NCBI RefSeq assembly: GCF_003173335.1
Contig: NZ_QGMZ01000010.1
Coordinates: 14,974-78,973 of the forward strand
Reading direction: 5' to 3'
DNA: 64,000 nucleotides
DNA from: Methanospirillum stamsii
GTDB lineage: Archaea; Halobacteriota; Methanomicrobia; Methanomicrobiales; Methanospirillaceae
Position 1 is the stretch's first letter. Every line of letters starts with the position of its first letter. The position numbers were made by a program, and so were the translations under genes. Positions 565-1,241 of this stretch are shown here, piece by piece. The notes below the pieces were generated by a model. It was not told the DNA's origin. It was given only the letters and a program-made list of their open reading frames with translations, and did no database searches.

Positions 565-1137
565 TTAATATGCACACTCAACTTTGCCTTCGAGGACCTT
601 TCCCTTGCAACAGGACTCTGTCTTCGGGTTAAAGCAGGAATCTCCACACTTGGTATATCCAAGTCCATCATAGGCTTTTCCAAGACAGCAACTCTGGTTA
701 TTTGGATTATAACACGTATCACCACATTTCCGCCATCCAGAGCCCGGATATATCTGGTTGTTACAACAGGTTTCATTTGTCATATCGTAGCATTTCCCAT
801 TACAAACCCCCCAGAGTAGTCCGTCTCTCGGTTCTCCAAGACAACATGACTGGGTAGTAGGATTGTAAAATGAATCGCCACAGGTAGGAAGACACCGGGT
901 TCCATTCACCGGAACGCCATTGCAACAGACCTGCTTTTCCATATCATAACAGGCGTCCTTACAGGTTCCCCAGTGAAGTCCATCATACACCTGGCCCTGA
1001 CAACATGACTGTTTGGCAGGATCATACGTACTGTCCCCGCAAGGCAGAAAAGTCATATTTGCACCAATAACAGAGACAGATACACCTAAACTAGCAAAAA
1101 GGACCACCCCGATGATCCAGATATGTATTTTTTGCAT
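565..1137 (-). CDS. Secreted Cys-rich repeat protein (galaxin-like repeats)
   Basis: The 190-residue protein has an N-terminal signal peptide or anchor (hydrophobic residues 6-24, likely cut near Ala26). The rest consists of six repeats of about 26 residues, each built on Cys-Gly-Asp-x-x-Tyr-Asn-Pro, then Gln-Ser-Cys-Cys-x-Gly. Odd repeats carry DGL and often WG; even repeats carry CYDM and CCN, so the period may really be a two-repeat unit. The paired cysteines resemble galaxin-type repeats of secreted eukaryotic matrix proteins, a resemblance judged by eye. It should be exported and disulfide-rich or metal-binding at the cell surface or sheath. It is divergent from the DUF1890 gene. No enzyme motif is visible. 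Confidence 0.85.
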   Translation of the reverse strand: MQKIHIWIIGVVLFASLGVSVSVIGANMTFLPCGDSTYDPAKQSCCQGQVYDGLHWGTCKDACYDMEKQVCCNGVPVNGTRCLPTCGDSFYNPTTQSCCLGEPRDGLLWGVCNGKCYDMTNETCCNNQIYPGSGWRKCGDTCYNPNNQSCCLGKAYDGLGYTKCGDSCFNPKTESCCKGKVLEGKVECAY

Positions 1138-1241
1138 ATAGTTTTGTACAGTGTCTTCACATCATGAAGTTTCTTTATCAAAAACAATCGATAGAAAAAA
1201 GTATCTCTTACATACACCCGAATATCATATTGTATATAACG

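What the first reader, a model, noticed from the sequence alone, without database searches (positions are those of the whole stretch)
565..1137. Secreted six-repeat Cys-Cys protein with an alternating two-unit period
Six repeats of about 26 residues each have a Cys-Cys pair, and odd and even repeats differ consistently (QSCC with DGL versus CYDM with CCN). This looks like a duplicated dimeric unit and resembles galaxin repeats of eukaryotic skeletal matrix proteins. In a sheathed archaeon such a protein could be a sheath or adhesion component.
Basis: partly seen in the sequence, partly recalled or inferred. Interest (0 to 1): 0.5.

Follow-up and report, generated by a model that had tools for sequence, protein, structure and literature searches.

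The report
Archaeal galaxin-like secreted disulfide-ladder protein
A sheath-forming methane-making archaeon carries a small, probably exported protein built like the galaxins of coral skeletons, a chain of hairpins that cysteine bridges could lock together, and it may help build the cell's outer casing.

Summary
The 190-aa ORF at 565-1137 (-) is a real gene with a signal-peptide-like N-terminus and six 26-27-residue repeats, each with one Cys-Cys. The galaxin guess holds: Pfam PF24748 (Galaxin_repeat) matches at 62.5 bits (cut-off 28), while 10 of 10 shuffles, five with every Cys kept in place, match nothing. AlphaFold2 (mean pLDDT 91.4) predicts a row of about 12 beta-hairpins. The 24 mature cysteines tile exactly into 12 neighbour-to-neighbour bridges, as published for galaxins (bridges inferred, not measured). 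Full repeats have one CC and one C-x3-C, the spacing of coral galaxin-like 1. The proposed odd/even 'duplicated dimer' fails: {1,3,5}/{2,4,6} ranks 4 of 25 partitions; the real two-beat is inside each repeat. The gene is syntenic in nine Methanospirillum genomes, looks under purifying selection, and is above the Pfam cut-off in 10 of 12 Methanospirillum genomes but 0 of 220 other genomes of the class. Most likely it is an extracellular, disulfide-rigid structural protein of the envelope. A sheath role is untested; the unidentified phenol-soluble sheath polypeptides are an attractive candidate match. A second copy sits behind arsF/arsG genes in a sister genome. Archaeal galaxin-family members have been stated in print: a new member of a known kind.

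The parts
565..1137 (-). Gene for the 190-aa galaxin-like protein, probably secreted (mature part from residue 27: 164 aa, 17.9 kDa, pI 5.1, 14.6% Cys)
   Evidence: PF24748 62.5 bits
1060..1137 (-). Signal-peptide-like N-terminus, residues 1-26 (cleavage site set by eye; no Cys in it, so no lipobox)
   Evidence: sequence; hydropathy
964..1041 (-). Repeat 1 (residues 33-58); lacks the second Cys of C-x3-C in this genome
883..963 (-). Repeat 2 (residues 59-85); carries extra C82
805..882 (-). Repeat 3 (residues 86-111); its own second Cys is missing, the C-x3-C spacing is kept by C82/C86
727..804 (-). Repeat 4 (residues 112-137)
649..726 (-). Repeat 5 (residues 138-163)
568..648 (-). Repeat 6 (residues 164-190), ends with lone C188
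1162..1176 (-). Upstream element AAAGAAACTTC(A/T)TGA, 25-39 nt before the ATG; candidate promoter element
   Evidence: exact in 6 of 8 short genes, one mismatch in G130, degenerate in the second copy of G122; one exact match in the own genome

Best explanation
A secreted galaxin-type protein of Methanospirillum. After removal of the signal peptide, six tandem repeats fold as a row of about 12 short beta-hairpins (two per repeat). The cysteines pair between neighbouring hairpins along the chain (33-45, 46-59, 63-71, 72-82, 86-98, 99-112, 116-124, 125-138, 142-150, 151-164, 168-176, 177-188). The result would be a continuous disulfide ladder: a rigid, resistant rod without free thiols. It most likely works outside the cell as a structural or cross-linking element of the envelope (S-layer/sheath/plug region). 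Shown here: gene, signal-like N-terminus, family match, cysteine arithmetic, predicted hairpins, genus restriction, conservation. Inferred: actual disulfides, export, location, rigidity and structural role.
For: PF24748 at 62.5 bits, cut-off 28, lost in 10 of 10 shuffles including 5 with Cys fixed. AlphaFold2 model mean pLDDT 91.4 with regular 3-4-residue strand pairs and short turns, resembling the galaxin models described in PMC12419799 (passages). 24 of 27 Cys columns are invariant in 8 of 8 short proteins; of the other three, columns 30 and 37 are both Cys in 6 and both not Cys in 2. 15 of 16 complete family proteins have an even number of Cys after the signal region (region set by eye); where an inner CC has become CS, the next repeat lacks its second Cys (8 of 8: 6 long and 2 206-aa proteins). 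dN/dS 0.04-0.09 in 3 of 7 pairs. Beside the DUF1894, RibD_C and PAPS-reductase genes in 9 of 9 loci compared. 10 of 12 Methanospirillum genomes (7 of 7 of high quality) over the Pfam cut-off, 0 of 220 other genomes of the class.
Against: No experiment shows export, disulfides or location. SH proteins occur in lineages without galaxin repeats over the cut-off. One short protein (G129) has 25 Cys, leaving one unpaired. The 16 proteins are close relatives, so the cysteine changes are few independent events. The first AlphaFold2 run, with 5 sequences, reached only pLDDT 63; the second has pTM 0.60. No solved structure matches by sequence or fold.
Confidence: 0.6

Rival explanations
1. It is one of the unidentified phenol-soluble polypeptides that stiffen the Methanospirillum sheath: a disulfide-linked glue or scaffold between SH hoops or in the plugs (a sharper form of the best explanation).
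For: PMC6242892 (passages): phenol-soluble polypeptides are about 20% of the sheath (citing Southam and Beveridge 1992), their removal makes it less rigid, and sheaths need DTT to dissolve. The galaxin protein is Cys-rich, signal-bearing, conserved in the genus and not over the cut-off elsewhere in the class. SH protein is given one or two Cys.
Against: The 1992 paper is not held, so sizes and composition could not be compared. The cryoET authors propose disulfides between SH cysteines. A closed ladder has no free Cys for cross-links.
Confidence: 0.22
2. A thiol/metalloid protein: partner or substrate of ArsF/ArsG-type thiol proteins, binding arsenite or similar with its cysteines.
For: A second copy in G122 (68% identical) lies 58 nt downstream of a CxxC protein gene that follows arsF, arsG and arsF, in an island with acr3 and arsR. 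The own genome has the same cluster by sequence (its genes were not scanned by name, except one without a match) followed by a decayed galaxin copy.
Against: None of the six window neighbours scanned is an ars gene, and the arsF-type and arsG-type families were seen only in the two cluster loci. The cysteine arithmetic favours a fully bridged protein. Only two genomes show the link.
Confidence: 0.1
3. An adhesin or carbohydrate-binding surface protein for aggregation with syntrophic partners.
For: PF10645 (Carb_bind) also exceeds its cut-off (28.0 vs 25 bits; 52.7 in the ten-repeat paralogue).
Against: PF10645 overlaps the same repeats with a weaker score, and the insulin growth factor-like family scores there as well (24.6 vs 25 here, 32.3 in the ten-repeat paralogue), so it is probably a by-catch of the Cys pattern. 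No anchor or other domain is seen.
Confidence: 0.13
4. Origin by convergence: an archaeal Cys repeat that resembles galaxin without common descent. (This rival concerns origin, not function, so its odds do not compete with the others.)
For: One or two galaxin-like units occur in other Methanomicrobiales proteins (G020, G008 by the family profile; G136, all three below the Pfam cut-off), which allows local amplification. PMC12419799 says common or convergent origin is unclear (passage).
Against: With the cysteines kept in place, 5 of 5 shuffles lose the Pfam match, so non-Cys residues matter too.
Confidence: 0.35

Closest known systems
Coral galaxin (Galaxea/Acropora), Pfam PF24748, PANTHER PTHR34490
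   Same: Signal peptide or signal-like N-terminus, tandem repeats of about 26-30 aa with di-Cys, 12-15% Cys, acidic mature protein, predicted hairpins with bridges between neighbours
   Different: One CC plus one C-x3-C per full repeat instead of two CC; archaeal host without a mineral skeleton; dibasic processing site not looked for
Amgalaxin-like 1 of Acropora millepora
   Same: 29-aa repeat with one di-Cys and two Cys separated by three residues (PMC2726143 passage): the Cys layout seen here in repeats 2, 4, 5 and 6, and in repeat 1 of 6 of 8 short proteins
   Different: 660 aa with a separate acidic domain and a mature pI of 9.09; here no such domain and pI 5.1
Calcarins of the sponge Sycon ciliatum
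   Same: Signal peptide, di-Cys regions with a lone Cys before and after, predicted hairpins joined by bridges (PMC12419799 passages)
   Different: No detailed repeat consensus; biomineral proteins
Methanospirillum sheath protein SH/MspA (Mhun_2271)
   Same: Signal-bearing beta protein of the same genus; disulfides thought important (passages)
   Different: A 40-kDa amyloid-like protein with one or two Cys; no direct comparison was run here

Membership tests
Pfam PF24748 Galaxin_repeat | Profile score over the curated cut-off (28 bits) | tested here: met
   62.5 bits, E 5e-17; four family members 61.6-173.9 bits
Pfam PF24748 Galaxin_repeat | Match not due to Cys composition or spacing alone | tested here: met
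   0 of 10 shuffled controls match, 5 of them with Cys fixed
Galaxin / galaxin-like proteins | Tandem repeats with di-Cys motifs | tested here: met
   six repeats, six CC
Galaxin / galaxin-like proteins | Two di-Cys per repeat (galaxin sensu stricto) | tested here: not met
   one CC and one C-x3-C per full repeat, as in Amgalaxin-like 1
Galaxin / galaxin-like proteins | Secreted | tested here: inconclusive
   signal-like N-terminus by hydropathy; no dedicated predictor or experiment
Galaxin / galaxin-like proteins | Hairpin ladder with bridges between neighbouring di-Cys | tested here: inconclusive
   hairpins predicted and Cys arithmetic fits; bridge distances not measured
PANTHER PTHR34490 | PANTHER model match | not tested
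   model not on hand; archaeal members stated in PMC12419799 (passage)
Amgalaxin-like 1 type | Separate acidic domain | tested here: not met
   outside the signal region and the repeats only residues 27-32 remain
Pfam PF10645 Carb_bind | Score over the cut-off | tested here: met
   28.0 vs 25 bits, overlapping the galaxin match and much weaker; not filed there
Methanospirillum sheath phenol-soluble polypeptides | Present in the phenol extract of purified sheath | not testable with these tools

The most novel reading that the evidence does not exclude
The galaxin-like proteins are the long-unidentified phenol-soluble rigidity factors (or plug components) of the Methanospirillum sheath, so that disulfide-ladder matrix proteins of the galaxin kind stiffen extracellular casings in both archaea and animals.
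Probability: 0.2. Interest if true: 0.7.

Novelty: new member of a known kind. Interest (0 to 1): 0.45.

Why it matters
Galaxins are known as animal skeletal matrix proteins; in the passages I saw, archaeal members get one clause (PMC12419799). A small, conserved archaeal version, above the Pfam cut-off only in Methanospirillum within its class, with a fully countable cysteine ladder, would be a simple model for a fold of which sequence and fold searches found no solved structure. It also gives a concrete gene to test against the unidentified rigidity polypeptides of the Methanospirillum sheath.

Tried and rejected
Odd/even duplicated dimer: rejected by repeat comparison. NCBIfam: no match. 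PDB by sequence: nothing credible (best E 0.47). Foldseek against PDB with both models: 0 matches at E <= 0.001; VIA-align second look: 0 of 14 chains aligned with Z >= 2; BFVD: 0 at E <= 0.001, best 0.012 with TM 0.13. Viral contigs (scan by short peptide patterns), phages and plasmids (tblastn): no relatives.

Weak galaxin matches in other Halobacteriota: in the phylum sample 4 of 391 other genomes reach E <= 0.001, none over the cut-off. Of these four, G089 (L014) is a permease with a CC-rich loop, G432 (L092) an Arg/Cys-rich frame, G433 (L093) a Cys-containing frame that I did not identify, and G025 (L015, three stops inside) was not read. L017 of G008, from the order search, is also a permease with a CC-rich loop. 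None was taken as a member.

Regulon idea for the upstream element: the own genome has one exact site, and with one mismatch 4 sites against 3 for the reversed control; in the window, 2 matches with up to 2 mismatches, reached by 9 of 100 shuffles; G120 and G122 have one exact site each. Dropped. First AlphaFold2 model (pLDDT 63) was superseded by the 9-sequence one (pLDDT 91).

Papers: galaxin with methanogen 0 papers; galaxin with archaea 5 papers, one read in passages (it states archaeal members), four seen only as listing; seen only as listings, apart from those of their papers named in the next sentence; one search lists 20 of 469. Seen in passages: PMC12419799, PMC2726143, PMC6242892, PMC10593813, PMC11641113, PMC11576556, PMC7582709. 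No paper was read whole.

Rows dropped: the 113-aa contig-edge fragment of G124 was left out of the 16-protein analyses; G121 and G126 (88% and 64% complete) have no match. The output was cut in the middle; the locus affected (L077) was listed again.

Full report
What is there. The window lies in contig C2 of a 3.74-Mb genome. The nearest named loci are Methanospirillum and 'Methanomicrobiales archaeon' MAGs (3 and 3 of 6 rows), so I take the host to be a Methanospirillum. The ORF at 565-1137 on the minus strand starts with ATG and encodes 190 aa. Residues 1-26 form a basic and hydrophobic signal-like N-terminus, followed by a 164-aa mature part of 17.9 kDa, pI 5.1 and 14.6% Cys (cleavage site set by eye). 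No lipobox, C-terminal anchor or second domain is visible.

The repeats. Six repeats of 26-27 residues follow each other without linkers. The full unit reads C-G-D-x-C-Y-N-P-x-x-Q-S-C-C-x-G-x-x-Y-D-G-x-x-W/Y-x-x. Of 25 partitions of the six repeats (2+4 or 3+3), odd/even ranks fourth, and the best is {2,4} against {1,3,5,6}. Repeats 2 and 4 share 0.35 non-Cys identity in the window protein and 0.23 in the mean over 8 proteins, so they look like two separately diverged repeats. Repeat 6 goes with the odd ones. The real two-beat is inside the repeat: a CC, and about 13 residues later a C-x3-C.

Family. Pfam PF24748 (Galaxin_repeat) matches at 62.5 bits, E 5e-17, cut-off 28. PF10645 (Carb_bind, 28.0 bits against 25) and IGFL (24.6 against 25) are weaker, overlapping matches. 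Ten shuffles of the mature protein, five with every Cys fixed, gave no Pfam match at all, so the galaxin match needs more than Cys spacing. The spacing of one CC and one C-x3-C per unit is that described for Amgalaxin-like 1, whereas galaxin proper has two CC per unit (PMC2726143, passages).

Structure. With four orthologues AlphaFold2 reached pLDDT 63. With four fragments of the ten-repeat paralogue added it reached 91.4, pTM 0.60. The model is a regular row of strand pairs of 3-4 residues with short turns: eleven hairpins with strands of three or more residues, and one near residues 85-90 with two-residue strands. In the six CC hairpins both Cys sit at the end of the first strand. In four C-x3-C hairpins (59/63, 112/116, 138/142, 164/168) one Cys ends the first strand and the other lies near the start of the second; the shifted pair 82/86 does not follow this. 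It resembles what is described for galaxin and calcarin models: di-Cys in hairpins, the first Cys of one bridging to the second Cys of the previous hairpin, with a lone Cys before and after the region (PMC12419799, passages). No solved or viral structure matched.

Cysteine arithmetic. The 24 mature Cys read: lone 33, then pairs 45/46, 59/63, 71/72, 82/86, 98/99, 112/116, 124/125, 138/142, 150/151, 164/168, 176/177, then lone 188. They tile into 12 bridges with none left over. All 24 columns are invariant in 8 of 8 short proteins. Of the 3 variable Cys columns, 30 and 37 are both Cys in six and both not in two; the third, 121, is Cys in G129 alone. Where an inner repeat has CS instead of CC, the next repeat lacks its second Cys, in 6 of 6 ten-repeat and 2 of 2 206-aa proteins. 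After the signal region, set by eye, 15 of 16 complete proteins have an even Cys count; the exception is G129 (25). The 16 proteins are related, so these are few independent events.

Distribution. Above the Pfam cut-off the repeat occurs in 10 of 12 Methanospirillum genomes, and in 7 of 7 of high quality. In the class it occurs in 10 of 232 genomes, all ten Methanospirillum. In a phylum sample it occurs in 1 of 392, the own genome. A profile of the family itself adds two genomes of 232, G008 and G020. There one or two units sit in a larger frame, and the Pfam score is below the cut-off. G136 has a similar unit in a lipoprotein-like frame, also below the cut-off. This hints at local amplification of a unit already present in Methanomicrobiales, though transfer is not excluded. 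One of the 14 control genomes, Bacteroides ihuae, also exceeds the cut-off, so the repeat is not absent from bacteria.

Neighbourhood. The gene keeps its place beside the DUF1894, RibD_C and PAPS-reductase genes in 9 of 9 loci compared, including the two 206-aa versions. The divergent DUF1890 gene is there in 7 of 9. The flank on the other side varies. A ten-repeat paralogue (295 aa in the own genome) lies between a HerA-like gene and an aminotransferase-V/SepSecS-type gene in 6 of 6 loci, with further genes in between in the own genome and one in G122. I read the latter as SepCysS, a recalled name. G122 has a second six-repeat copy 58 nt downstream of a CxxC protein gene, which follows arsF, arsG and arsF, in an island with acr3 and arsR. 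The own genome has the same cluster by sequence, followed by a remnant with four stops in its span. Selection on the main copy looks purifying: dN/dS 0.04, 0.05 and 0.09 for the 3 of 7 pairs with an estimable dS, two of them near saturation.

How it most likely works. Export, then oxidative folding into a rigid rod of bridged hairpins, acting as a structural element outside the membrane (inference). The sheath is the obvious place to look. Sheaths need a reductant to dissolve, and about 20% of their mass was assigned to phenol-soluble polypeptides whose removal makes them less rigid (PMC6242892, passages, citing a 1992 paper I could not read). A later survey could not link further proteins to sheath or plugs (PMC11576556, passage). 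Against a general sheath role, SH proteins occur in Methanoregulaceae and Methanotrichales, while galaxin repeats over the cut-off do not occur in the class outside Methanospirillum. The envelope proteomics passages I saw do not mention it.

Verdict. The galaxin observation is right, the alternating-dimer reading is wrong, and the sheath role is open. Archaeal members of PTHR34490 were stated in print (PMC12419799, passage), so the kind is known. In my searches of the held library (mostly seen as listings) I saw no paper describing the Methanospirillum proteins.

Noticed in passing
L077 8897-15486 (G122) and L008 424-3160 (G000:C88): A galaxin-like copy follows arsF, arsG, arsF and a CxxC protein gene in G122, near acr3 and arsR; in the window's genome the same cluster (by sequence) is followed by a decayed galaxin copy with two TGA and two TAG in its span.
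   Followed up: partly
L007 3828-4715 (-) (G000:C39): A ten-repeat, 295-aa paralogue, syntenic in 6 of 6 loci compared, with one CC changed to CS that splits the cysteine ladder into two closed segments.
   Followed up: yes
window 1162-1176 (-): Element AAAGAAACTTC(A/T)TGA upstream of the short galaxin genes, exact in 6 of 8; one exact match in the window's genome.
   Followed up: partly
L082 8369-8989 (+) and L083 8413-9033 (-): The 206-aa versions have a Cys in a lipobox-like ITSC (motif recalled) at the end of the signal region, so they might be lipid-anchored where the window protein is not.
   Followed up: no
L031 1171-2163 (+) (G131, another genus of the family): Secreted-looking protein with a different Cys repeat (CNGxCYD...C) that weakly resembles this one; no PF24748 match up to E 0.1.
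   Followed up: no
L014 868-2190 and L017 997-2397: Permeases that resemble one beside the G122 second copy, with long CC-rich loops; they give false galaxin matches and might bind metal.
   Followed up: no
L016, L029 and L061: One or two galaxin-like units in larger frames of other Methanomicrobiales (G020, G008, G136), possible relatives of the unit before it was amplified.
   Followed up: partly
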